The notes below the pieces were generated by a model. The model worked only from the letters and a program-made list of their open reading frames with translations, ran no database searches and was not told the origin of the DNA. Positions 8,352 to 57,002 of a DNA stretch of 64,000 bases are shown here, in pieces. The stretch is from Bradyrhizobium sp. sBnM-33 (lineage in GTDB: Bacteria; Pseudomonadota; Alphaproteobacteria; Rhizobiales; Xanthobacteraceae), in contig NZ_CP136624.1 in NCBI RefSeq assembly GCF_032917945.1, positions 1,922,001 to 1,986,000 of the forward strand, written 5' to 3'. The translations under genes and the position numbers were made by a program. Position 1 is the first letter of the stretch; each line of letters opens with the position of its first letter.

Positions 8352-8571
8352 CAGAAACCACGCGCGCGGCCAGATGGCTCTGGATCTGCTGCGATCCGAT
8401 TCCTGAACAGCCAAGCGGTGCCTGATCCCACCAAGCTCGTTGGTCCGATGATCGAGCGGCTTCTCGTTTGCGACGGCGCGCGCCGGACTCCCAAGAAGGT
8501 GAGGCGATCCGGTACTTTGCGCGATTTTTGCAAGGCTGATCGCAGGATGATCAATTGATGGTTCTCTTGTC

Positions 8572-8976
8572 ATGAACGAGCGGCGGACGCAGCCGAATAT
8601 CGCCTATGCAATCTGCGGCTTCAACGATATTCCAAGCCAGCGCGCCATGGGCTTCCACCTCATGATCGTCGACGAAGACGGCAGCCACAGGCCGTGGCCC
8701 ATTGTCGTGGTGCGCTGGGGCAAGCGGGTGTTTGCCTATCTTAACAAATGCCCGCACAATGGCGTCAATCTGGACTGGGAATGCAACCAGTTTTTCGATC
8801 CACGCGGCATCCGGCTGATGTGCGGCAAGCACGGCTCGACCTTCGAGCTCGGCACCGGCCGCTGTGTGGACGGCCGGTGCAAGGGCAGCAGTCTCACGCC
8901 GGTCGCGTTGACGGTGCTGGACGGCGATATCTGCGTTACCGGCGTGCGGCTTGTCGAGGAGGATTCCTCTGGCTAA
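8572..8976 (+). CDS. Rieske-type [2Fe-2S] ferredoxin-like protein (copy A)
   Basis: 134 residues with both Rieske ligand boxes: CPHNGVNL near residue 61 and CGKHGSTFELGTGRC near 85, i.e. two Cys and two His for a [2Fe-2S] cluster. Small soluble Rieske proteins occur in rhizobial nif clusters and are presumed electron carriers. It precedes the NifA-controlled module at 8992-10180. A decayed copy with a 55-bp deletion lies at 38031. A weak sigma-54-like element (CTTTGCGCGATTTTTGC near 8515) has TG rather than GG at -24, so its promoter is uncertain. Confidence 0.85.
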   Translation: MNERRTQPNIAYAICGFNDIPSQRAMGFHLMIVDEDGSHRPWPIVVVRWGKRVFAYLNKCPHNGVNLDWECNQFFDPRGIRLMCGKHGSTFELGTGRCVDGRCKGSSLTPVALTVLDGDICVTGVRLVEEDSSG

Positions 8977-8991
8977 AGCTAAAGCCGGCGC

Positions 8992-9582
8992 TCAGACCGG
9001 CCGGTTCTCGTTACGGTTTCTCACAGGTTCCATCCTCTTCAGCCCGTCTTCATAAGAGATCTCATCATAGGACGCATCGAGATCCTTGGTTGCGTCGAGC
9101 AGGTAGTCGAGCTTGCCGGGCGCGTCGAGCTTCTTGATGTCATTCTTGTCGACCCCGGCCAGGTACATCATTTCCTTCCAAACGGTGGATTCATCGCACG
9201 GCAGCACGTTGAAGGTGATACCACCGAGCTTGATTCGGTATTTCGCCAACAGGTCTATGTTGTTGCAAAACATGAAGTAGCTGCCATCAGGGCTTAGCGC
9301 GCCGTCAAGAACGTTTGCGACATCAGCAAGATAAGCGAAGCAGTGCAGATAGCCGGCCAGCACCGGAATGCTCCTTTCGCCTTCCTGCACGACCGTCAGT
9401 ACCTGCTCGATCGAATAGTGGGGCGGCCGCTTCTCGTCCGCGACCTGGGCCTGGAATTTTAGGGCGATATCGCCGCGAAAGCCGAACCGGCCCTGCTTGG
9501 TGGTCCCGCCTTTGAATATGGCATTGAGCAGGCGCCCCTCCTTCTCGAACCGGCCTAGCGCGGTGTTCTCGATTGCAGTCAT
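8992..9582 (-). CDS. Conserved protein of unknown function, NifA/sigma-54-driven (copy A)
   Basis: 196 residues, family not recognised. It starts MTAIENTALGRFEKEGRLLN and has a hydrophobic centre (VLAGYLHCFAYLADVANVLDG). There is no signal peptide or known metal motif, though a few cysteines are present. A close paralog is intact at 38403-38996. The gene is transcribed away from iscA from a shared regulatory region: a minus-strand -24/-12 promoter at 9641-9655 and a NifA site at 9730-9745. Co-regulation with nif genes and retention in two copies suggest a role in nitrogen fixation or symbiosis. Confidence 0.75.
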   Translation of the reverse strand: MTAIENTALGRFEKEGRLLNAIFKGGTTKQGRFGFRGDIALKFQAQVADEKRPPHYSIEQVLTVVQEGERSIPVLAGYLHCFAYLADVANVLDGALSPDGSYFMFCNNIDLLAKYRIKLGGITFNVLPCDESTVWKEMMYLAGVDKNDIKKLDAPGKLDYLLDATKDLDASYDEISYEDGLKRMEPVRNRNENRPV

Positions 9583-9640
9583 GAAAAATCATCCCTCGAT
9601 CCAAGACAATCGCCGGACACTCCGGCGGCGGGAGACGCAA

Positions 9641-9655
9641 TGCAAATTGTTTGCC
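9641..9655 (-). promoter_or_regulatory. Sigma-54 promoter, minus strand (gene 8992-9582)
   Basis: On the minus strand GGCAAACAATTTGCA has GG and GC exactly 12 bases apart and a good TTGCA -12 box; the -24 box GGCAA deviates slightly from GGCAC. It lies about 60 bp upstream of the start codon and 75 bp from the NifA site. Confidence 0.75.
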
Positions 9656-9729
9656 GCCGCGCTCGTAACGCTCATCGGCGAAATCCATAAAGAAGACACG
9701 CAAAGCCGCCGCAATCCCTCGAAGACCTT

Positions 9730-9745
9730 TGTCAGCAACCCTACA
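9730..9745. promoter_or_regulatory. NifA upstream activator site, shared by divergent genes
   Basis: TGT-CAGCAACCCT-ACA matches the NifA consensus TGT-N10-ACA exactly. It sits between two divergent sigma-54 promoters, 63 bp from the plus -24 box and 75 bp from the minus one, so one site could activate both directions. Confidence 0.85.
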
Positions 9746-9805
9746 CGCGTCGCAAAGCCAACAGGCGCGATTTCGAAAAGGTGAGCAATGTCAAGCTCGG
9801 GCGCG

Positions 9806-9821
9806 CTGGCATGCGACTTGC
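9806..9821 (+). promoter_or_regulatory. Sigma-54 promoter of the iscA-nifS operon
   Basis: CTGGCATGCGACTTGC fits the -24/-12 consensus, with GG at 9808-9809 and GC at 9820-9821. The iscA start codon is 39 bp downstream. Confidence 0.9.
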
Positions 9822-9859
9822 CAATTCCCATGCAAACGACCCAGGCAAAAAGGATAGCC

Positions 9860-10180
9860 ATGATCAATCTGACGGATAGCGCAGTGAATGCGGTCAAGAG
9901 CACGATTTCAGCATCGGCGCAGCCGGCAAGCGGCCTGCGCATCATGGTCGAGGCCAGTGGCTGCGCCGGGTTCAAATACCGGTTGAGCCTGGCCGACGAG
10001 GCTAAGCCTGACGACACCGTGATCGAGCGCGACGGTGTCAAGGTGTTCGTAGACAACAAGAGCCATGACCACCTCGCCGGCACGACCATCGATTTCGTGG
10101 TGGCGCTCGAGGGCTCGGGCTTCACCTTCGACAACCCGAACGCCAAATCGAGCTGCTCTTGCGGCAAATCCTTCAGCTGA
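9860..10180 (+). CDS. iscA: IscA/HesB-family Fe-S carrier
   Basis: 106 residues of the A-type carrier family that accepts Fe-S clusters and passes them to apoproteins such as nitrogenase components. Cluster ligands are visible: one Cys in the SGCAG region near residue 34 and the C-terminal CSCG near residue 100. The ATG at 9860 is preferred over upstream in-frame starts because it follows an AGGATAG ribosome site and lies downstream of the sigma-54 promoter. It heads an operon with the NifU-like and nifS genes. Broken copies occur at 14848, 39285 and 41432. Confidence 0.9.
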   Translation: MINLTDSAVNAVKSTISASAQPASGLRIMVEASGCAGFKYRLSLADEAKPDDTVIERDGVKVFVDNKSHDHLAGTTIDFVVALEGSGFTFDNPNAKSSCSCGKSFS

Positions 10181-10200
10181 TGACAAGAGAAATCGAAGCA

Positions 10201-10476
10201 TGCCGGTCGAACCGGAACAACTGAAGCAACCGCCGAGCATTGAGACCGGTCGGGAGCAACTACGGCGCGAACCAGCCGAATCTGCAACGCGACGGCGGCG
10301 ACTGTCAGCTGGTCGGGATCGAGGGGAGCAAGATCATGGTCAAGCTGACTGGTGCCTGCGTATTCTGCAAGCTTTCAAGCGCGACGCTAGAAGGCATTCA
10401 GGCGCGGCTGGTCGAAAGGCTCGGCGACTTCGTTCGCCTGATCCCGGTCGCCGGCGCCGCCAATGCGCGGCATTGA
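10201..10476 (+). pseudogene. NifU C-terminal-domain (Nfu-like) gene, frameshifted 5' part
   Basis: An ATG at 10200/10201 opens VEPEQLKQPPSIETGREQL, but a small deletion near 10258 (seen against the 41774 copy, which continues IRAVIEEIRPN) shifts the frame. The Nfu-type scaffold core then reads in the other frame from a TTG at 10240: GDCQLVGIEGSKIMVKL, GACVFCKLSSATLEGIQ. The Nfu CxxC (CVFC) is intact. A shortened 78-residue product from 10240 is possible, so function may survive in part. It lies between iscA and nifS, where a NifU-like Fe-S scaffold is expected. Confidence 0.7.
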
Positions 10477-19493: not shown

Positions 19494-19943
19494 ATGGGCA
19501 GCCAAGAGATCGAGGTGTTCGCCGTCTGTCGCGCCGATGCAATCGAGCGGGGCGGCGCGAAGGGTTTTAGCCTGTCGCGGATCGACGAGAGCGGCGAGAG
19601 CCGGCCGTTTCCGATTGTCGTGGTGCGGACCTTCGGAAACGACTACCACGGCTATGTTAACCGCTGCCCGCATGACGGCGCCTGGCTCAACATCGGCTCC
19701 GGAGAGTTTTTCTCGTCGGACCGCGGCTTTATCAGATGCGGCCGGCACGGTGCGACCTTCGAGATCGATAGCGGGTTTTGCATCGATGGCCCCTGCAGCG
19801 GAAAAGCCCTTGAGCCGGTCGCGCTCGCCATGGTCGATGGCGACGTCTGCCTGTGTGGCGTGAAGCTGGTGGAGGACAACGGGTTTCCCGATCCGTTCGA
19901 GGACGGCGAGGAAACCATGGACATCATGGTCCATCCGGATTAA
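19494..19943 (+). CDS. Rieske-type [2Fe-2S] protein
   Basis: 149 residues with both ligand boxes, CPHDGAWLNIGSGEFF near residue 62 and CGRHGATFEIDSGFC near 83. The N-terminus (EIEVFAVCRADAI) and acidic C-terminus (PFEDGEETMDI) differ from the 8572 copy, so this is a diverged paralog. It is presumed to carry electrons and is the last clear gene of this nif block. Confidence 0.85.
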   Translation: MGSQEIEVFAVCRADAIERGGAKGFSLSRIDESGESRPFPIVVVRTFGNDYHGYVNRCPHDGAWLNIGSGEFFSSDRGFIRCGRHGATFEIDSGFCIDGPCSGKALEPVALAMVDGDVCLCGVKLVEDNGFPDPFEDGEETMDIMVHPD

Positions 19944-22006: not shown

Positions 22007-23456
22007 CTAGCACTACTTTGGCACTTTAGTCGTCGCGATATCTGCAAGGAACATGTCGCAGTGAGGACATTGTCGGGGTGGAGGTCGTGCGAAGAGGTCG
22101 AGGATGGCTTGCCTGATGGCCGGCATGCTTGGTTGTGGTGGCGGTCCTGAGATTCTTTTTTTTCCGTCCCGCTGCTTTGAGGCGGCGGGATTGGAGGAAG
22201 GCGTAGGCGATCATCGTCATCAACGCGTGTCGATGTAATCCCGTCCAGGATCTACCTTCGAAGTGGTCGAGCCCAAGCTCCTCCTTGAGCTGCTGGTGGG
22301 CCTGTTCACAGACCCACCTGGCCTTGATCGTGGCAGCGAGCGTCTTGATGGTGGCATCGGCCGGCAGGTTCGACACATAGTATTTTTGCTCCCCGGTCGA
22401 CCGCCGCTCGCCGACGAGCCAGACCTCGTCGCCAGGCATGCACTGCATACGGTTATTGATCATCCGGTGCTTATGGCCATCCGCAACGCGGACACGGCGG
22501 GCCGTGAAGAGACATGTCAGCCGACCTTTGGTGCCCCGCCGCCAGCTGACCCTTTGCCATTTGCCTTTGGCCAATAACGCTTCAGCAGAGACCGGTGGCT
22601 GATCAGGGATGTGGTATTTGCGGGGCTTTCCGGTCTTCGCGATGGGGAAGATCAGGGCAATGTCGGCGGGATAGACGTTCTGGCGCCGCGACAGACCCAC
22701 CGCCCACAGCAGACCGCGCTCGCTCAAAGCCTGACGGAAAGGCCCGCTGGAGCCGTACCCTGAATCGGCAAGCACACAGCCGAAACGCACACCGGAGGCG
22801 ATGACGCGGTCGATCTCCTCGATCGCAATCTCCGGCTTTGTCAGAGCAGTCTGTCTATCCTTCGGCACACCCGCCCGCGCCATGCGCTCAGGATCATTTG
22901 TCCAGTTCTCGGGCAGGAACAGCCGCAGGCCCACCATCACCGGCACTTCCCGCGACGCCAACGTTAGCGAGACTAGCGACTGACAGTTAGCAGTCTTTCC
23001 GAGCGACGAGGCATATTGTGGCGCGACGCCAATCGAGTGACGTCCCTTCTTGGGCAACGCCGTATCATCGATGACAAGAAAACCCGCATCATCGCCAACC
23101 AATCTGTCTGCCTCCTTCAGCAGGGCAGCCTCGAGTGGAGCACTGTCCCAAACTCCGGCAGCGACGAAATGATGGAGCTGATCGTAACCGACCCCACTGG
23201 CGCGTGCCGCCATCGGTTGAACGCTCTTGCGGTCTCCTGGACCAATCAAACCCGCGACGTAGAGAGGGCACATCCGGGCCCGCGTCTTGTGCCCTAGCGC
23301 CGCGACAAACGGCGCAAGCCAGCGATCGAGATCGGCTTGCCAGTCCACGTCCATAGATCGGCCCTCCATAAGCCGACCTCTCATGAATCATTGAAAACCT
23401 GATTCGGGAATCCTGTTGCGACGATCAATCCAATAAATCTGCCAAAGTAGTGCTAG
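22007..23456 (-). mobile_element. IS701-family insertion sequence (copy 1)
   Basis: A 1442-bp element (22011-23452) flanked by CTAG on both sides (22007-22010, 23453-23456), matching the YTAR 4-bp duplication of the family. Inverted repeat CACTACTTTGGCA. An inverted copy with an identical protein and identical length is at 51164-52613. It sits exactly between the IS1182 and IS630 elements. Confidence 0.93.
22026..23384 (-). CDS. IS701-family transposase (copy 1)
   Basis: 452 residues if read from 23384; MDVDWQADLDRWL at 23354 is the more family-like start. Typical blocks are VIDDTALPKKGRHSIGVA, VLADSGYGSSGPFRQAL and CEQAHQQLKEELGLDHFEGRS. Protein identical to the copy at 51236, so the duplication is very recent. 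Confidence 0.92.
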   Translation of the reverse strand: MRGRLMEGRSMDVDWQADLDRWLAPFVAALGHKTRARMCPLYVAGLIGPGDRKSVQPMAARASGVGYDQLHHFVAAGVWDSAPLEAALLKEADRLVGDDAGFLVIDDTALPKKGRHSIGVAPQYASSLGKTANCQSLVSLTLASREVPVMVGLRLFLPENWTNDPERMARAGVPKDRQTALTKPEIAIEEIDRVIASGVRFGCVLADSGYGSSGPFRQALSERGLLWAVGLSRRQNVYPADIALIFPIAKTGKPRKYHIPDQPPVSAEALLAKGKWQRVSWRRGTKGRLTCLFTARRVRVADGHKHRMINNRMQCMPGDEVWLVGERRSTGEQKYYVSNLPADATIKTLAATIKARWVCEQAHQQLKEELGLDHFEGRSWTGLHRHALMTMIAYAFLQSRRLKAAGRKKKNLRTATTTKHAGHQASHPRPLRTTSTPTMSSLRHVPCRYRDD

Positions 23457-37363: not shown

Positions 37364-37940
37364 AGCGCTCATCCCACCGATGCGGAAAGCATTCCAATGA
37401 CTGCTCCCACCAAGAGAGGCTGCTTCGGGGCACTTTTCCGTATGATGACGAACCGGAAGCAATTTGACAGCGGTGATCTTCACCGGTGAGCCTTTCGAGC
37501 AGGACACTTCGGCGAATTTGATCTCGTAGTTGCCAGGGCCTGCGGAAAAAACCGGAACCATCGTGCCATCCGCCTGACGGGCACGGGCAAGCCCAGGCCG
37601 GCGGCCGAAACCGGATTGGCCGCGAGGAGCGGCTGGTTCACGCCACCCTCCGCGGGCCGAAGGCCGGCGTGCCAACGCTGAAAATCACGAGAATCCCGCC
37701 TGATCGACAGCGCAATCTGCCGTAATCGGGCGCGTGACCGAATAGATGGTCAGCATGCCACGATCGAGCATTGCCGTCAGCTCGTCCAGCGAGCAGCCGG
37801 CAAAGTCGGACGCGAAGAGATCAATTTTTTGTAGCAGCCGCGGAGATGCGCGTTGTGAGCCCCGTAAAGCGACAGTGCTCGCGCGAACCCGTCGATCGTG
37901 CACGGGTCGCACCTAGTGGTGGTGCGCTTGCGACGCCGCG
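37364..37940. other. Decayed DNA with two minus-strand coding fragments
   Basis: Fragment 1 (about 37420-37560, minus): GTMVPVFSAGPGNYEIKFAE, PVKITAVKLLPV. Fragment 2 (about 37685-37850, minus): DLFASDFAGCSLDELTAMLD and a C-terminus at 37685. Both look like real coding sequence that has lost its start; no family recognised. Confidence 0.35.
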
Positions 37941-38030
37941 CGTCGAATTCCCCAGAAGGTGAGGCGATCCAGCACCCTGCGCGATTCTTGCAGGGCTGGT
38001 CGCAGGGTGATTAATGAAAGGCATCTTGTC

Positions 38031-38434
38031 ATGAACGAGCAATGGATGCAGCCGAATACCGCCTATGCGATCTGCGGCTTCTACGACATCCCAAGCCGTG
38101 GTCCATTGTTGTGGTGCGCTGGGGCAAGCGGGTGTTTGGCTATCTCAATAAATGCCCGCATAACCGGGTCAACCTGGACTGGGAACGTAACCAGTTCCTC
38201 GATCCCAAGGGCATCCGGCTGATGTGCAGTAAGCACGGCTCGACCTTCGAGCTCGGCACCGGCCGCTGCGTTGATGGCCCGTGCAAGGGCAGCGGGCTCA
38301 CGCCGGTCGCGTTGACGGTGCTGGACGGCGACATCTGCGTCACCGGCGTGCGGCTTGTTGTAGGACGAGAACGGATCCCACCGGCGAGGGCTGGACCAGC
38401 GCTCAGACCGGCCGGTTCTCGTTGCGGTTTTTGA
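38031..38434 (+). pseudogene. Rieske-type protein gene, copy B, internal deletion
   Basis: Homologous to the Rieske gene at 8572 from its upstream region onward. Between CCAAGCC and GTGG a 55-bp segment present in copy A is missing, which shifts the frame after residue 22. The rest, including CPHNRVNLDW and CSKHGSTFELGTGRC, reads in the other frame. The C-terminus also diverges (VVGRERIPPARAG). Confidence 0.85.
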
Positions 38435-38996
38435 CGGGCCCCATCCTCTTCAGCCCGTCTTCGTAGGAGATTTCGTCATAGGATGCATCGACATTCCTGG
38501 CCGCGTCGAGCAAGTAATCGAGCCTGCCGCCCGCATCGAGCTTCTTGAGGCCGTTCTTGTTGACCCCGACCAGGTCCATCATCTCCTTCCAGATGACAGT
38601 GGATTCATCGCACGGCAGCACGTGGAAGGTGATATCACCGAGTTTGGTTCGGTATTTCGCCAACAGGTCTATGTTGTTGCAAAACATGAAGTAGCTGCCA
38701 CCAGGGCTTAGCGCGCCGTCAAGAACGTTTGCGATATCAGCAAGATAAGCGAAGCAGTGCAGATAGCCGGCCAGCACCGGAATGGTGCTTTCGCCTTCCT
38801 GCGCGACCATCAGCACCTGCTCGATCGAATAGTCGGGCGGCCGCTCCTCGTCCGCGACCTGGGTCTGGAATTTTAGTGCGATATCGCCGCGAAAGCCGAA
38901 CCGGCCCGGCTTGGTGGTCCCGCCCTTGAATATGGCATTGAGCAGGCGCCCCTCCTTGTCCAGCCGGCCGAGCGCGGTGTTCTCGATTGCAGTCAT
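38403..38996 (-). CDS. Conserved protein of unknown function, NifA/sigma-54-type promoter (copy B)
   Basis: 197 residues and clearly paralogous to the protein at 8992-9582 along its whole length (same MTAIENTALGRL start and NRNENRPV end; I estimate near 85-90% identity by eye). The frame is intact even though the adjacent Rieske and iscA copies are broken, which argues for selection. A minus-strand sigma-54 promoter is at 39056-39070; the NifA site upstream is damaged. Confidence 0.75.
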   Translation of the reverse strand: MTAIENTALGRLDKEGRLLNAIFKGGTTKPGRFGFRGDIALKFQTQVADEERPPDYSIEQVLMVAQEGESTIPVLAGYLHCFAYLADIANVLDGALSPGGSYFMFCNNIDLLAKYRTKLGDITFHVLPCDESTVIWKEMMDLVGVNKNGLKKLDAGGRLDYLLDAARNVDASYDEISYEDGLKRMGPVKNRNENRPV

Positions 38997-39055
38997 GAAA
39001 ATCGTCCTCGATCTAAGCTCATCACCGGACACCTCGGCCGGCGCAACATGTGCAA

Positions 39056-39070
39056 TGCAAATTGTTTGCC
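39056..39070 (-). promoter_or_regulatory. Sigma-54 promoter, minus strand (copy B)
   Basis: GGCAAACAATTTGCA, identical to the copy A promoter. It lies 60 bp before the start of the gene 38403-38996. Confidence 0.75.
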
Positions 39071-39145
39071 GCCGCGACTGGAATGGTTCATCCGCGTAAC
39101 ACTTAAAGAAAACACGCAAGCGCGTCGCGATCCCTCGAAGAGCCT

Positions 39146-39161
39146 CGTCAGGAACCCGACA
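39146..39161. promoter_or_regulatory. Degenerate NifA site (copy B)
   Basis: CGT-CAGGAACCCG-ACA aligns with the intact TGT-N10-ACA site of copies A and C but has lost the first T. Activation of the copy B promoter may therefore be weak. Confidence 0.5.
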
Positions 39162-39217
39162 CGGGTCGCAAAGCCACTCTGAGCGATTCGAAAAAGACGG
39201 GAACTATCAAGCGCGCG

Positions 39218-39233
39218 CTGGCATGCAGCTTGC
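39218..39233 (+). promoter_or_regulatory. Orphan sigma-54 promoter (copy B)
   Basis: CTGGCATGCAGCTTGC keeps GG/GC spacing of 12, but the iscA gene it should drive is reduced to a 60-bp fragment at 39285. Confidence 0.65.
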
Positions 39234-39284
39234 GAATTCGCAAGCAACCGACTTATGCAAGGGAAGGGTGAGCCACAAGCAACC

Positions 39285-39345
39285 TGGATGCAGTCAAGAC
39301 CGCGATCTCAACGTCGGCGCAGCCGGCGAGCGGGCAGTCATTGTT
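39285..39345 (+). pseudogene. iscA fragment (copy B)
   Basis: GGATGCAGTCAAGACCGCG and the following CGGCGCAGCCGGCGAGCGGG match codons 10-25 of iscA at 9860. The remainder is lost. No function possible. Confidence 0.7.
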
Positions 39346-39476
39346 GCTTCGGCCTCGTCGTGGCGGTTCGCGTTCACGAACCGCCTCGCTGCTCATCAGT
39401 CATAGACGCGTCGTCGACACCCGGCGCATGCGGGAGTTGGCGCAGCCCTTGGCGGGTGATCTTCTTCCCTTCGCCT

Positions 39477-41153
39477 TCATTCAGACCCCGCAGCCATCGC
39501 TCCGGCCCCACCCAAGAGCTTCACGTTGAGGCGGCCGCCGGTGAACAGCATGTCGTCGAGCGCTTCCTCGATGTCAGCTGTGGTCACTGAGTTTCCGCCG
39601 TTACGAGCGATGCATGATTGCGCAATGCGCCGCATCAGCTCCTTAATGAAAGCGGCGCTGACGCCCTCAGTGCGGCGCACCGTCTCGGCTACGATCTCCG
39701 CCTCAAGCGGCAGGCCCATGCCGTAAAGCCGGATCAGCTTGTCGCGGCCGGTCGTATCAGGCAGCGGCATCTCGATCGCCTGGTCGATGCGGCCGGGACG
39801 ACCGGCCAGGGCGCCCTCGAGTTGTTCGGGGCGGTTGGTGGTGAGCACGAAGAGGATGTCAGCGTCTTCCTTCAAGCCGTCCATTTCATTTAGGAGCTTG
39901 TTCAGCGCGGCCTCCTCACATGTTGTCAAGTCGTCGCGCTTGCTGGCGATCAGATCGACATCCTCGATCACCACCATGGTAGGCTGCAGCAGGCGCGCGA
40001 GCGCCATATAGGCGCTCAGCTCACCGACCTCTTCGGCGGTGATGATTAGCGTGGTGTGTCCCGGTAGGTTGGTGGCGAGATAGCGGATGGTGTGGGTCTT
40101 ACCGGTGCCCGGCGGGCCATAGAGCAGGATGCCCTTGCGGGTCGACTGGCCGAATCGGCGGAGTGCGCCGCGCGTGGCGACAAAACTCAACACGTTGCGA
40201 TCGAGCAATTTGATAGCCTGTTCCCGCAGGATCACCTCCTCGCGCCTCACTGGTGCCACTCGATGCACCGTGATGCCTCTTGAGCGGCCGCTGTAATCCG
40301 CACCTTTCTCAAATGAGAGGATCTTGCCGCGATAAGAACGTGCCGCGTGCACCGCCCGTTCCAGTTCGTCAAAGCTGCGCTGAACAAAGGCTTCGCCGCC
40401 AGACCCCGCAGGGGCAACGATTTCAATCCGGATCCTCGGCTCTTGCTTGAACTCGAACTCAGTAGAGAGCACGACGGCATAGAAAAATTCGCTCGCCCGG
40501 CAAAGCCACAGTCCATTGCACAGGCATTTGACCGGCGCCGTTTCGCCAGTATCAACGTGGTGATATTGCGGCGGCACCAGCGAAATCGCATTCCGTCCAC
40601 GCTGTTTGATCCGAGCGAATGAAAGCGTCTCGTACCTATGTTGTTCATAGACGCCGAAGAAGCGGACCGGATCGGCGAATAGCTTATCGATCGCGACCTG
40701 AACATCGGCCTGCATGTGGCCCGGGAATCGCCGCACAGTAGTGGCGAGTTCGCTCGGCGGTATGTTGGTGAAGTGCCACTCAAGCGCTTCGAAGGCATAT
40801 TCGAATTGCACGTCGGACAGGTCGGGGCCGTCCGGTTCGCCCGCGGCTTCGCCCGTGATCAGCAGGGGACATCCTTCAGCTCGGATACGCTCTTGCGCCG
40901 CCTCGAGGAGCGCCTTTGCGACTGAGGGAGGATAGCGTCCGCAGACGGCCTTGCCATGCTGCAAGACGAGTTCGGCGAGCGCAATGGCATCCCGCTCCTG
41001 TTTGTCGAATACCTCGCGCAGCAGGCGTACCACGAAACCGAGAGTCGTCTTGTCGTCATTGTGCAAAACAAGCTGAATGGGCGCACCGCCTGCGGAGATC
41101 TTGTCGACAAAGACCCCCGGTGCGTGTTCTAGTTGTTCGGTAGTGTTCGTCAT
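39477..41153 (-). CDS. ClpS-domain/AAA+ ATPase fusion under NifA/sigma-54 control
   Basis: 558 residues from MTNTTEQLEHAPG; upstream in-frame codons overlap the promoter. Residues about 22-105 form a ClpS adaptor domain (IQLVLHNDDKTTLGFVV, HGKAVCGRY), the module that delivers N-degron substrates to ClpAP. A linker domain of about 230 residues with no recognised family follows. Residues about 330-540 are a Cdc48/FtsH-like AAA+ module: Walker A GPPGTGKT at 346-353, Walker B VVIEDVD at 394-400, sensor TTN at 438-440, arginine-finger-like GRPGRID. There is no protease domain. Minus-strand sigma-54 promoter at 41212-41226 and a perfect NifA site at 41302. It probably remodels or unfolds a specific protein during nitrogen fixation; substrate unknown. 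Confidence 0.88.
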   Translation of the reverse strand: MTNTTEQLEHAPGVFVDKISAGGAPIQLVLHNDDKTTLGFVVRLLREVFDKQERDAIALAELVLQHGKAVCGRYPPSVAKALLEAAQERIRAEGCPLLITGEAAGEPDGPDLSDVQFEYAFEALEWHFTNIPPSELATTVRRFPGHMQADVQVAIDKLFADPVRFFGVYEQHRYETLSFARIKQRGRNAISLVPPQYHHVDTGETAPVKCLCNGLWLCRASEFFYAVVLSTEFEFKQEPRIRIEIVAPAGSGGEAFVQRSFDELERAVHAARSYRGKILSFEKGADYSGRSRGITVHRVAPVRREEVILREQAIKLLDRNVLSFVATRGALRRFGQSTRKGILLYGPPGTGKTHTIRYLATNLPGHTTLIITAEEVGELSAYMALARLLQPTMVVIEDVDLIASKRDDLTTCEEAALNKLLNEMDGLKEDADILFVLTTNRPEQLEGALAGRPGRIDQAIEMPLPDTTGRDKLIRLYGMGLPLEAEIVAETVRRTEGVSAAFIKELMRRIAQSCIARNGGNSVTTADIEEALDDMLFTGGRLNVKLLGGAGAMAAGSE

Positions 41154-41211
41154 GAAAGTGGTCTCCGATCTAAGCTCATCACCGGACACTTCGGCCGGCT
41201 TAGACACGCAA

Positions 41212-41226
41212 TGCAAATTGCTTGCC
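41212..41226 (-). promoter_or_regulatory. Sigma-54 promoter of the ClpS-AAA+ gene
   Basis: GGCAAGCAATTTGCA on the minus strand, GG/GC spacing 12, located 59 bp before the ATG. Homologous to the minus-strand promoters of copies A and B. Confidence 0.75.
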
Positions 41227-41301
41227 GCCGCGTTCCTTACGCTTTATCGGCGGAATCCATAAAGAAGACACGCAAAGCCGCCGCAATCCCTCGAAGACCT
41301 T

Positions 41302-41317
41302 TGTCAGCAACCCTACA
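41302..41317. promoter_or_regulatory. NifA upstream activator site (copy C, bidirectional)
   Basis: TGT-CAGCAACCCT-ACA, identical to the copy A site, between divergent sigma-54 promoters. Confidence 0.85.
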
Positions 41318-41376
41318 CGCTCGCAAAGCCAACAGGCGCGATTTCGAAAAGGTGAGCAATGTCAAGCTCGGGCGCG

Positions 41377-41392
41377 CTGGCATGCGACTTGC
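41377..41392 (+). promoter_or_regulatory. Sigma-54 promoter of the broken iscA (copy C)
   Basis: CTGGCATGCGACTTGC, identical to the copy A promoter at 9806; drives only a pseudogene here. Confidence 0.85.
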
Positions 41393-41431
41393 CAATTCCC
41401 ATGCAAACGACTCGGGAAAATAAAGGGTGCC

Positions 41432-41753
41432 ATGATCAATCTGACGGATAGCGCAGTGAATGCGCTCAAGAGCGCGATCTCGGCTTCGGCGCAGCCGACG
41501 AGCGGCCTGCGCATCATGGTCGAGGCCGGTGGCTGCGACGGGTTCAAATACCGGATGAAGCCTGGCCGACGAGGCTCAGCCTGACGACACCGTGATCGAG
41601 CGCGACGGCGTCAAGGTGTTCGTCGACAATAAGAGCCATGAACACCTCGCCGGCACGACGATCGATTTCGTGGTGGCGCTGTAGGGCTCGGGCTTCACCT
41701 TCGACAACCCAAACGCCAAATCGAGCTGCTCTTGCGGCAAATCCTTCAGCTGA
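41432..41753 (+). pseudogene. iscA, copy C, frameshift and nonsense codon
   Basis: MINLTDSAVNALKSAISA reads correctly to KYRM near residue 43, then an extra base shifts the frame. Codons further on (DTVIERDGVKVFVDNKSHEH) match iscA until GAG has become TAG in the VVAL-stop-GSGFTF region. The C-terminal CSCG remains in the sequence but is not translated. Confidence 0.88.
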
Positions 41754-41773
41754 TGACAAGAGAAATCGAACCA

Positions 41774-41885
41774 TGCTGGTGGAACCAGAACAACTGAAGC
41801 AACCGCCGAGCATTGAGACCGGTCGGGAGCAACTCATTCGCGCCGTGATCGAGGAGATCCGGCCCAATCCGCAACGCTGCCTGGG
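41774..41885 (+). pseudogene. NifU C-terminal-like gene, 5' fragment (copy C)
   Basis: MLVEPEQLKQPPSIETGREQ, then LIRAVIEEIRPNPQR, which is the correct frame that copy A has lost. Homology ends near 41880, and the sequence after it is unrelated. Together, copies A and C show the ancestral protein. Confidence 0.75.
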
Positions 41886-51167: not shown

Positions 51168-52613
51168 CACTACTTTGGCAGATTTATTGGATTGATCGTC
51201 GCAACAGGATTCCCGAATCAGGTTTTCAATGATTCATGAGAGGTCGGCTTATGGAGGGCCGATCTATGGACGTGGACTGGCAAGCCGATCTCGATCGCTG
51301 GCTTGCGCCGTTTGTCGCGGCGCTAGGGCACAAGACGCGGGCCCGGATGTGCCCTCTCTACGTCGCGGGTTTGATTGGTCCAGGAGACCGCAAGAGCGTT
51401 CAACCGATGGCGGCACGCGCCAGTGGGGTCGGTTACGATCAGCTCCATCATTTCGTCGCTGCCGGAGTTTGGGACAGTGCTCCACTCGAGGCTGCCCTGC
51501 TGAAGGAGGCAGACAGATTGGTTGGCGATGATGCGGGTTTTCTTGTCATCGATGATACGGCGTTGCCCAAGAAGGGACGTCACTCGATTGGCGTCGCGCC
51601 ACAATATGCCTCGTCGCTCGGAAAGACTGCTAACTGTCAGTCGCTAGTCTCGCTAACGTTGGCGTCGCGGGAAGTGCCGGTGATGGTGGGCCTGCGGCTG
51701 TTCCTGCCCGAGAACTGGACAAATGATCCTGAGCGCATGGCGCGGGCGGGTGTGCCGAAGGATAGACAGACTGCTCTGACAAAGCCGGAGATTGCGATCG
51801 AGGAGATCGACCGCGTCATCGCCTCCGGTGTGCGTTTCGGCTGTGTGCTTGCCGATTCAGGGTACGGCTCCAGCGGGCCTTTCCGTCAGGCTTTGAGCGA
51901 GCGCGGTCTGCTGTGGGCGGTGGGTCTGTCGCGGCGCCAGAACGTCTATCCCGCCGACATTGCCCTGATCTTCCCCATCGCGAAGACCGGAAAGCCCCGC
52001 AAATACCACATCCCTGATCAGCCACCGGTCTCTGCTGAAGCGTTATTGGCCAAAGGCAAATGGCAAAGGGTCAGCTGGCGGCGGGGCACCAAAGGTCGGC
52101 TGACATGTCTCTTCACGGCCCGCCGTGTCCGCGTTGCGGATGGCCATAAGCACCGGATGATCAATAACCGTATGCAGTGCATGCCTGGCGACGAGGTCTG
52201 GCTCGTCGGCGAGCGGCGGTCGACCGGGGAGCAAAAATACTATGTGTCGAACCTGCCGGCCGATGCCACCATCAAGACGCTCGCTGCCACGATCAAGGCC
52301 AGGTGGGTCTGTGAACAGGCCCACCAGCAGCTCAAGGAGGAGCTTGGGCTCGACCACTTCGAAGGTAGATCCTGGACGGGATTACATCGACACGCGTTGA
52401 TGACGATGATCGCCTACGCCTTCCTCCAATCCCGCCGCCTCAAAGCAGCGGGACGGAAAAAAAAGAATCTCAGGACCGCCACCACAACCAAGCATGCCGG
52501 CCATCAGGCAAGCCATCCTCGACCTCTTCGCACGACCTCCACCCCGACAATGTCCTCACTGCGACATGTTCCTTGCAGATATCGCGACGACTAAAGTGCC
52601 AAAGTAGTGCTAG
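51164..52613 (+). mobile_element. IS701-family insertion sequence (copy 2)
   Basis: Element 51168-52609 (1442 bp) between CTAG duplications at 51164-51167 and 52610-52613. Same length and ends as copy 1, opposite orientation. It is nested at the end of IS630 (c'). Confidence 0.94.
51236..52594 (+). CDS. IS701-family transposase (copy 2)
   Basis: 452 residues, identical in sequence to the copy 1 product. All family blocks intact. MDVDWQADLDRWL at 51266 is a likely start. Confidence 0.93.
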   Translation: MRGRLMEGRSMDVDWQADLDRWLAPFVAALGHKTRARMCPLYVAGLIGPGDRKSVQPMAARASGVGYDQLHHFVAAGVWDSAPLEAALLKEADRLVGDDAGFLVIDDTALPKKGRHSIGVAPQYASSLGKTANCQSLVSLTLASREVPVMVGLRLFLPENWTNDPERMARAGVPKDRQTALTKPEIAIEEIDRVIASGVRFGCVLADSGYGSSGPFRQALSERGLLWAVGLSRRQNVYPADIALIFPIAKTGKPRKYHIPDQPPVSAEALLAKGKWQRVSWRRGTKGRLTCLFTARRVRVADGHKHRMINNRMQCMPGDEVWLVGERRSTGEQKYYVSNLPADATIKTLAATIKARWVCEQAHQQLKEELGLDHFEGRSWTGLHRHALMTMIAYAFLQSRRLKAAGRKKKNLRTATTTKHAGHQASHPRPLRTTSTPTMSSLRHVPCRYRDD

Positions 52614-56957: not shown

Positions 56958-56973
56958 TGTCCGGCTTCTGACA
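56958..56973. promoter_or_regulatory. NifA site 1 of the nifH region
   Basis: TGT-CCGGCTTCTG-ACA, perfect consensus. Centre is 29 bp from site 2, so the sites are not on exactly the same helix face. Confidence 0.85.
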
Positions 56974-56986
56974 GCGGCACGAATCC

Positions 56987-57002
56987 TGTCACGTTCAAAA
57001 CA
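56987..57002. promoter_or_regulatory. NifA site 2 of the nifH region
   Basis: TGT-CACGTTCAAA-ACA, perfect consensus, 71 bp before the nifH -24 box. Confidence 0.87.

What the first reader, a model, noticed from the sequence alone, without database searches (positions are those of the whole stretch)
39477..41410. Nif-regulated ClpS-AAA+ fusion protein
A single intact 558-residue protein joins a ClpS N-degron adaptor domain (residues about 22-105, HNDDKTT and HGKAVCGRY) through an unassigned domain to a Cdc48/FtsH-like AAA+ module with complete Walker A, Walker B, sensor and arginine-finger motifs. It has no protease domain. ClpS is normally a separate small protein that feeds ClpAP. The gene has a minus-strand sigma-54 promoter and a perfect TGT-N10-ACA NifA site, so it should be made with nitrogenase. 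That suggests a dedicated unfoldase or remodelling factor that recognises N-degrons during nitrogen fixation.
Basis: partly seen in the sequence, partly recalled or inferred. Interest (0 to 1): 0.85.

Follow-up and report, generated by a model that had tools for sequence, protein, structure and literature searches.

The report
Nif-cluster ClpS–AAA+ fusion chaperone
A nitrogen-fixing soil bacterium carries, under what looks like a nitrogenase-type switch, a protein that joins a piece of the Clp protein-degradation system to a ring-type ATP-driven machine, and cousins of that machine sit in nitrogen-fixation regions of other rhizobia, which points to an unstudied protein-handling helper for nitrogen fixation.

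The parts
39477..41153 (-). ClpS-AAA+ fusion gene, 558 aa plus stop
40839..41090 (-). ClpS-fold domain, residues 22-105
40254..40820 (-). middle alpha/beta domain, residues 112-300, no named family
39495..40247 (-). classic AAA+ module, residues 303-553
40095..40118 (-). Walker A GPPGTGKT, residues 346-353
   Evidence: K352 and T353 in 202 of 202 rows
41213..41227 (-). sigma-54 -24/-12 box of the fusion gene, CGGCAAGCAATTTGC
   Evidence: box present in 17 of 17 nif-type copies (16, window)
41302..41317 (.). NifA-type site TGT-N10-ACA shared by both divergent promoters
41378..41392 (+). divergent sigma-54 box TGGCATGCGACTTGC of the hesB gene
41432..41747 (+). second hesB/iscA copy (block B), frame broken; nifU fragment follows
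   Evidence: tblastn in two pieces, residues 1-42 and 44-105
38403..38996 (-). conserved unknown protein (197 aa; paralogue of 8992-9582) downstream of the fusion gene on the same strand
   Evidence: no Pfam family at E<=1 and no NCBIfam family for it above a chance-level hit, none for the 196-aa paralogue
39090..39164 (.). decayed copy of the shared leader between the fusion gene and the 197-aa gene (77% to the reference copy; its UAS reads CGT..ACA)
   Evidence: family D6
38042..38434 (+). small Rieske [2Fe-2S] protein gene of the same block
   Evidence: naming from an annotated relative
8465..10261 (.). paralogous block A: Rieske, 196-aa gene, shared promoter, hesB, without the fusion gene

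Best explanation
The protein is an AAA+ ATPase, presumably ring-forming, that works as a chaperone or remodeller rather than as a threading unfoldase. Its ClpS-fold domain is an N-terminal substrate- or partner-docking module that has lost key parts of the N-degron pocket; the middle domain and the AAA+ module form a Bcs1/YjoB-like body without the pore-loop grip. In an ancestor of two Bradyrhizobium symbiotic lineages a copy of the chromosomal family was placed between a conserved unknown nif-cluster gene and the divergent NifA/sigma-54 promoter of hesB-nifUS, so that it is now made with nitrogenase and its Fe-S assembly proteins. Shown: the predicted fold, the motifs, the promoter elements and their conservation, the single clade, the nif-cluster position. 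Inferred: transcription by NifA/RpoN, ring assembly, chaperone action. Not known: the client; I suspect a nif-expressed or Fe-S protein.
Against: No expression, binding or ATPase data. The middle domain alone gives only middling fold matches and no Bcs1 or YjoB row, so the likeness may rest mostly on the AAA+ module and layout; whole-model superpositions are poor (rmsd 7.9-14.9 in the Bcs1 and YjoB rows). A paper passage says aromatic pore-1 loops are typical of remodelling machines as well as unfoldases (PMC9663308), so their absence is unusual for a remodeller too; another describes a loop at the pore-loop-1 place in Bcs1 that touches its client (PMC12219900). The nif-type copy is in only 17 of the 159 genomes with nifH, so most fix nitrogen without it. 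Constraint is weaker than on nifN and nifB (0.13 each; nifS 0.25) and four chromosomal pairs (0.07-0.12). Six of 18 nif-type rows have lost a conserved arginine (Cys) of the arginine-finger region and have Walker B D-D. Of the 10 nif-linked cousins, two are annotated as two ORFs and one is a relic.
Confidence: 0.42

Rival explanations
1. One reading: an N-degron-specific unfoldase. The ClpS domain binds destabilising N-termini and hands the protein to its own AAA+ ring, which unfolds it.
For: ClpS fold at 0.7 A rmsd to a ClpS-peptide complex; Asn34, Asp35 and Thr38 positions kept in 18 of 18 nif-type rows, Leu/Val at Met40; Walker A and sensor 1 kept.
Against: His66 position is Leu/Trp in nif-type rows and Glu/Asp in 151 of 184 others, His in only 6; Pro39 lost in 12 of 18 and Met62 in 18 of 18 nif-type rows; pore loop 1 absent. 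The roles of these ClpS residues are recalled, not taken from a passage read here.
Confidence: 0.12
2. A passenger: the copy was trapped under a strong nif promoter, is expressed, but has little or no function in fixation and is slowly decaying.
For: Higher dN/dS than nifN, nifB and chromosomal pairs; 0.27-1.29 among nine very close nif-type pairs, on few changes; loss of an arginine and altered Walker B in 6 of 18 rows; only 17 of 159 nifH genomes have it; the neighbouring hesB copy is broken.
Against: No stop inside and near full-length match in 17 of 17 nif-type copies, while the adjacent duplicate hesB matches in two pieces or in part in several loci; sigma-54 box kept in 17 of 17 and UAS in place in 14 of 16, including copies only 68-71% identical; dN/dS 0.31 at dS 0.58 is clearly below 1.
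Confidence: 0.28
3. A general stress or defence AAA+ protein (for example kin of the anti-phage ATPase family IteA) that merely lies near nif genes because symbiosis islands and plasmids collect mobile genes.
For: NCBIfam IteA match 62 bits; 8 of 18 cousin loci show no nif or fix gene in the flank seen; no conserved neighbour of the family, at most 22 of 80 loci share one.
Against: IteA match is far below its cut-off of 510 bits; the nif-type copies and three of eight scanned ClpS-less cousins carry UAS plus sigma-54 boxes.
Confidence: 0.1
4. An adaptor-ATPase that feeds a separate protease: the ClpS-AAA+ protein delivers nif proteins to ClpP or another peptidase.
For: ClpS ancestry; a CxxC...CxxC insert in 132 of 184 other rows, weakly like the ClpX zinc finger (Pfam zf-C4_ClpX E 1e-4 and 1.8e-3, below cut-off, in 2 of 7 proteins scanned, 5 of which have the insert), suggests a tie to the Clp system.
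Against: No protease domain, no widely shared neighbour gene, no pore-loop grip; the insert is absent from 18 of 18 nif-type rows. A ClpP-docking motif was not tested.
Confidence: 0.08

Closest known systems
Bcs1 (mitochondrial AAA translocase of the folded Rieske protein)
   Same: Middle domain plus one AAA+ module; best full-length Foldseek match; said to lack the conserved pore loop (PMC11143374, passages). Walker B E-D in Bcs1 is recalled.
   Different: Bcs1 has an N-terminal membrane segment (PMC11143374, passage) and no ClpS domain; sequence identity 15-19%; middle-domain likeness not shown.
Bacillus subtilis YjoB (7w42, 7w46)
   Different: No ClpS domain; identity 17-20%, 22-27% over the parts aligned; known from Bacilli (recalled).
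ClpS adaptor of ClpAP
   Different: Fused, not stand-alone; His66, Pro39 and Met62 replaced.
Cdc48/p97, FtsH and PAN AAA+ modules
   Same: Closest by sequence for the AAA+ part (a Cdc48-type chain E 1.3e-55 with the profile; 106 bits to the PAN model).
   Different: No pore loop 1, Walker B E-D, one AAA+ module, no protease domain.
ClpX zinc-binding domain
   Same: CxxC...CxxC insert after ClpS in 132 of 184 other rows.
   Different: Missing in the window's protein; Pfam scores below cut-off.
NifA-RpoN regulon genes (hesB, nifH and others)
   Same: UAS plus -24/-12 geometry; PMC4999443 (passage) names hesB in Rhizobiales among genes with candidate NifA sites.
   Different: Main-text word searches of four regulon or bacteroid papers gave no such ATPase: no ATPase at all in three, a cation-transporting ATPase in the fourth; supplements were not searched.

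Membership tests
ClpS | ClpS fold | tested here: met
ClpS | N-degron pocket residues (Asn34, Asp35, His66, Met40, Met62, Val65; roles recalled) | tested here: not met
   Asn34, Asp35, Val65 kept; His66 to Leu, Met62 to Ala, Met40 to Leu, Pro39 to Thr
ClpS | stand-alone adaptor docking on ClpA with an N-terminal extension | tested here: not met
   fused to its own AAA+ module; docking itself not testable
classic AAA+ unfoldase (FtsH/Cdc48 type) | Walker A, sensor 1, arginine fingers | tested here: met
   GPPGTGKT, LTTNRP, GRPGRID in the window
classic AAA+ unfoldase (FtsH/Cdc48 type) | pore loop 1 with aromatic-hydrophobic-Gly | tested here: not met
   nine alignment columns with FVG in two FtsH-like proteins of the own genome are gaps in 32 of 34 family rows; two rows have three residues there
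Bcs1 | Bcs1-specific middle domain | tested here: inconclusive
   full-length matches rank Bcs1 first, the part-model without AAA+ does not list it
Bcs1 | N-terminal transmembrane segment | not tested
   no membrane predictor was run; in the model a low-confidence 21-residue N-terminus and the ClpS domain stand there
Bcs1 | heptamer moving a folded Rieske protein | not testable with these tools
   a Rieske gene is the next gene but one but is also in a cluster without the fusion
YjoB | N-domain plus AAA+ body of YjoB | tested here: inconclusive
   329 residues at rmsd 5.6; no YjoB row for the part-model
NifA-RpoN regulon | TGT-N10-ACA site upstream of a -24/-12 box at usual spacing, conserved in orthologues | tested here: met
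NifA-RpoN regulon | transcription dependent on NifA and RpoN | not testable with these tools
   no transcript data held
IteA anti-phage ATPase | curated NCBIfam score | tested here: not met
   62 bits against a cut-off of 510

The most novel reading that the evidence does not exclude
Rhizobia have a dedicated, NifA-controlled, non-threading AAA+ remodeller for nitrogenase or its Fe-S assembly proteins (a nitrogenase counterpart to Bcs1 or Rubisco activase), present as ClpS-less forms in Rhizobium, Sinorhizobium, Mesorhizobium and Paraburkholderia nif/fix regions and independently recruited in Bradyrhizobium as a ClpS fusion whose N-degron pocket was reshaped for a new client.
Probability: 0.18. 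Interest if true: 0.85.

Novelty: new variant of a known kind. Interest (0 to 1): 0.62.

Why it matters
ClpS is known as a separate adaptor. Here it is fused to its own AAA+ module in a family that is common in Bradyrhizobium (125 of 265 genomes) and, as far as my searches show, unstudied, and one branch has been wired to a nitrogenase-type promoter. If the protein services nitrogenase or Fe-S assembly proteins, fixation would have a mechanical helper that standard lists of nif genes omit; the gene is intact in cultured strains and can be deleted. It also warns that database labels ('ATP-dependent Clp protease adaptor ClpS') are misleading for this family.

Tried and rejected
Considered and rejected: (1) that the sigma-54 promoter faces only hesB. 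At first the + strand box (41378) looked like the sole promoter; the upstream scan showed a second box at 41227-41213 in usual geometry. (2) Fusion by assembly error: rejected. (3) A conserved operon partner that would betray function: none (the most frequent neighbour is in 22 of 80 loci, nif-type loci included, some contigs ending early). (4) IteA-type defence ATPase: score far below cut-off. (5) Bcs1 membership via the neighbouring Rieske gene: tempting, but a Rieske gene is also in a cluster without the fusion, and the part-model lists neither Bcs1 nor YjoB. (6) pNGR234a: looked for a recalled AAA gene (y4kL) in 215-265 kb; not seen in that stretch. (7) Literature: the listings show no paper on this fusion or on a nif-linked AAA+ chaperone; passages only were read of PMC11143374, PMC12219900, PMC9663308, PMC1779556, PMC4999443, PMC6421345, PMC6274998 and PMC8461304; word searches in PMC3538637 and PMC7888657 returned nothing. 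The passage of PMC8461304 names an AAA family ATPase gene only as a homologue grouped with nifH and calls such genes non-symbiotic. (8) A sequence family for the middle domain: none. (9) Close nif-type pairs are too similar for firm dN/dS values.

Rows dropped or weak before counts: L078 and L080 (short or broken frames) were left out of the tree and residue counts but counted among the 69 loci, where their upstream stretch was taken from a wrong start; 80 of 117 confirmed genome loci were kept by the tool; 17 of 44 plasmid records with ClpS-less cousins were opened, plus genome G350, with flanks of 5-12 kb; L139 has an 8-kb flank, while its close relative L122 shows fixLJ only at about 9 kb; promoters were scanned in eight of the 18, not in L127, L139-L146 or L147. 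Named loci and G genomes overlap, and the 18 nif-type rows include near-identical ones, so these counts are not independent.

Full report
What is there. The window lies in a 9.18-Mb single-contig genome (G000); its relatives by this protein are Bradyrhizobium. It carries nifS, nifB, nifN, nifH and nifV over their NCBIfam cut-offs, an ETF-alpha (fixB-like) gene, nolL and several transposases. The gene of the finding runs on the minus strand from ATG 41153 to the stop at 39477, 558 codons. Pfam finds ClpS and AAA; no peptidase is among the 25 of 27 families shown. The AAA+ part is nearest by sequence to Cdc48, PAN and FtsH modules.

Does it bind N-degrons and unfold? In 202 rows (18 nif-type, 184 others) the Asn34, Asp35 and Thr38 positions are kept in 18/18 nif-type rows. 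The His66 position is Leu in 12 and Trp in 6 nif-type rows, and Glu or Asp in 151 of 184 others, His in 6. Met62 is Ala in 18/18 nif-type rows; Pro39 is kept in 6/18. A stand-alone ClpS of this genome (C1:4913535) keeps NDDYTPMEF and the histidine; a second one (C1:3536652) was not read. So the pocket has been altered; the functional weight of these residues is recalled. In the AAA+ module about nine residues that hold the FVG motif in two FtsH-like proteins of the genome are absent in ClpS-fused and ClpS-less members, and Walker B reads E-D in 195 of 202 rows. A passage of PMC9663308 says aromatic pore-1 loops serve both unfoldases and protein-remodelling machines; PMC11143374 (passages) says Bcs1 lacks the conserved pore loop and carries a folded 2Fe-2S protein; PMC12219900 (passage) still describes a loop at that place in Bcs1 that touches its client. 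A threading unfoldase is therefore unlikely; a Bcs1-like chaperone or remodeller fits better.

The family. 125 of 265 genomes of the genus have a member at E <= 1e-60; G018, G037, G041, G042, G060, G063 and G064 have one (in part short) but no nifH, so the family as a whole is not tied to fixation. No neighbour gene is widely shared. 132 of 184 other rows have a CxxC...CxxC insert after ClpS; 0 of 18 nif-type rows do; the Pfam ClpX zinc finger scores below cut-off in 2 of 7 proteins scanned, 5 of which have the insert. In this genome the other family member is frame-broken (C1:8795223-8796943).

The nif-type branch. Ten named genomes carry a 93-100% copy and B. macuxiense a 71% copy. With P0001, P0018, P0019 and the window they form one clade with SH-aLRT 100 in an 87-row tree (quick method). 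Among the 265 genomes 17 have it (13 at 93-100%, 4 at 68-71%), all 17 with nifH, against 159 of 265 overall. The sigma-54 box is in 17/17; the UAS is at -158 to -165 in 14 of 16 with sequence (G093 is cut by a contig end; G079 has none; G073 has sites at -217 and -118 only). Of 80 named loci, 11/11 nif-type have the box and 10/11 the UAS (the eleventh cut), and 0 of 69 others have both; five of the 69 have one or the other. Background: 2 of 13348 overlapping windows. The two genome sets overlap.

How it got there. In Bradyrhizobium sp. BWA-3-5 and sp. 187 the unknown 196-aa gene directly faces hesB. In B. macuxiense the fusion gene lies between them, inside one nif cluster. In the window there are two blocks: A (8465-10261) without and B (37925-41834) with the fusion; in block B hesB is frame-broken and nifU truncated, a decayed copy of the leader lies behind the fusion gene, and in four of twelve relatives a hesB 5' remnant is seen there (L009, L012, L015, L017). 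The simplest story is that the fusion gene took over the leader of the unknown gene. Its frame is open in 17 of 17 genomes. dN/dS (own NG86 script) window vs B. macuxiense: fusion 0.31, nifN 0.13, nifB 0.13, nifS 0.25, unknown gene 0.16-0.21; four chromosomal pairs 0.07-0.12; nine very close nif-type pairs 0.27-1.29 on few changes: selected, but less tightly. In the 68-71% group, the six rows of 18 have Cys for a conserved arginine near the arginine finger and Walker B D-D, which speaks for altered or fading ATPase there.

Cousins without ClpS. 44 plasmid records encode the middle plus AAA+ part at 37-57% identity. I opened 17 of them plus genome G350. Ten of these 18 have nif or fix genes within the flank seen (5-12 kb): Rhizobium bangladeshense, R. 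leguminosarum Norway and R. binae (aspartate transaminase - AAA - fixAB and following - nifA), R. lentis and R. hidalgonense (facing nifHDKE), two Mesorhizobium (beside fdxB), Paraburkholderia sprentiae (nifHDK - AAA - nifEN), Sinorhizobium garamanticum (fixLJ about 9 kb off), and a relic in S. meliloti M270 pSymA directly before fixABC-nifA. Two of the ten are annotated as two ORFs and one is a relic. Eight of 18 show no nif or fix gene. UAS plus sigma-54 box stands before three of eight scanned (L122, at -528/-405, L123 and L125); two have a box only at about -120 (L118, L121), one a box at -269 (L119), two neither (L120, L126). The records come mostly from nodule strains, and symbiotic plasmids are dense in nif genes, so linkage is suggestive only. 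In a sample of 397 genomes of the order, 10 had the part, 2 of them outside the genus. In a 34-row tree the ClpS-less rows form one side of a fully supported branch.

Judgement. Identity and architecture are firm (about 0.95). NifA/sigma-54 control is well supported by conserved DNA, unproven by expression (about 0.85). The mechanism - a non-threading AAA+ chaperone/remodeller with a repurposed ClpS docking domain, serving nif-expressed proteins - is inference (0.42); the passenger model is the main rival (0.28).

Noticed in passing
8465-10261 and 37925-41834: Duplicated nif blocks A and B, 77-99% alike piece by piece; the hesB copy in block B is frame-broken and its nifU truncated.
   Followed up: yes
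8992-9582 and 38403-38996, minus strand: Conserved 196/197-aa protein of unknown family in Bradyrhizobium nif clusters, facing hesB across the shared NifA/sigma-54 promoter.
   Followed up: partly
G000:C1:8795223-8796943 (L002, L003, L005): The other ClpS-AAA paralogue of this genome is frame-broken near Walker A; breaks in the AAA+ part (query about 345-391) are also seen in G238, G094 and G259.
   Followed up: partly
P0053, P0082, L081 and others: Weakly ClpX-like CxxC...CxxC insert between ClpS and the middle domain in 132 of 184 other rows.
   Followed up: yes
L143, L144, L145: A cytochrome P450 gene follows the ClpS-less AAA gene directly in three Rhizobium plasmids.
   Followed up: no
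L127, 8001-9063: Relic of the AAA gene before fixABC-nifA in S. meliloti M270 pSymA.
   Followed up: partly
L122, L139, L126: Pairs of pitrilysin-family peptidase genes lie near the AAA gene on Sinorhizobium plasmids, with groESL in two of them.
   Followed up: no
L123 and L142: A TIR / caspase-family gene set lies a few kb upstream of the AAA gene in R. bangladeshense and R. binae.
   Followed up: no
56958-57002: Two TGT-N10-ACA sites 13 bp apart upstream of a -24/-12 box without mismatch (57072) before nifH (57160).
   Followed up: no
22026-23384 and 51236-52594: Two IS701-family transposase ORFs of equal length with identical scores, in opposite orientation.
   Followed up: no
38042-38434 and 19596-19871: Small Rieske [2Fe-2S] gene beside the unknown 197-aa gene; a more distant Rieske-like match (45%) at 19596-19871.
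   Followed up: partly
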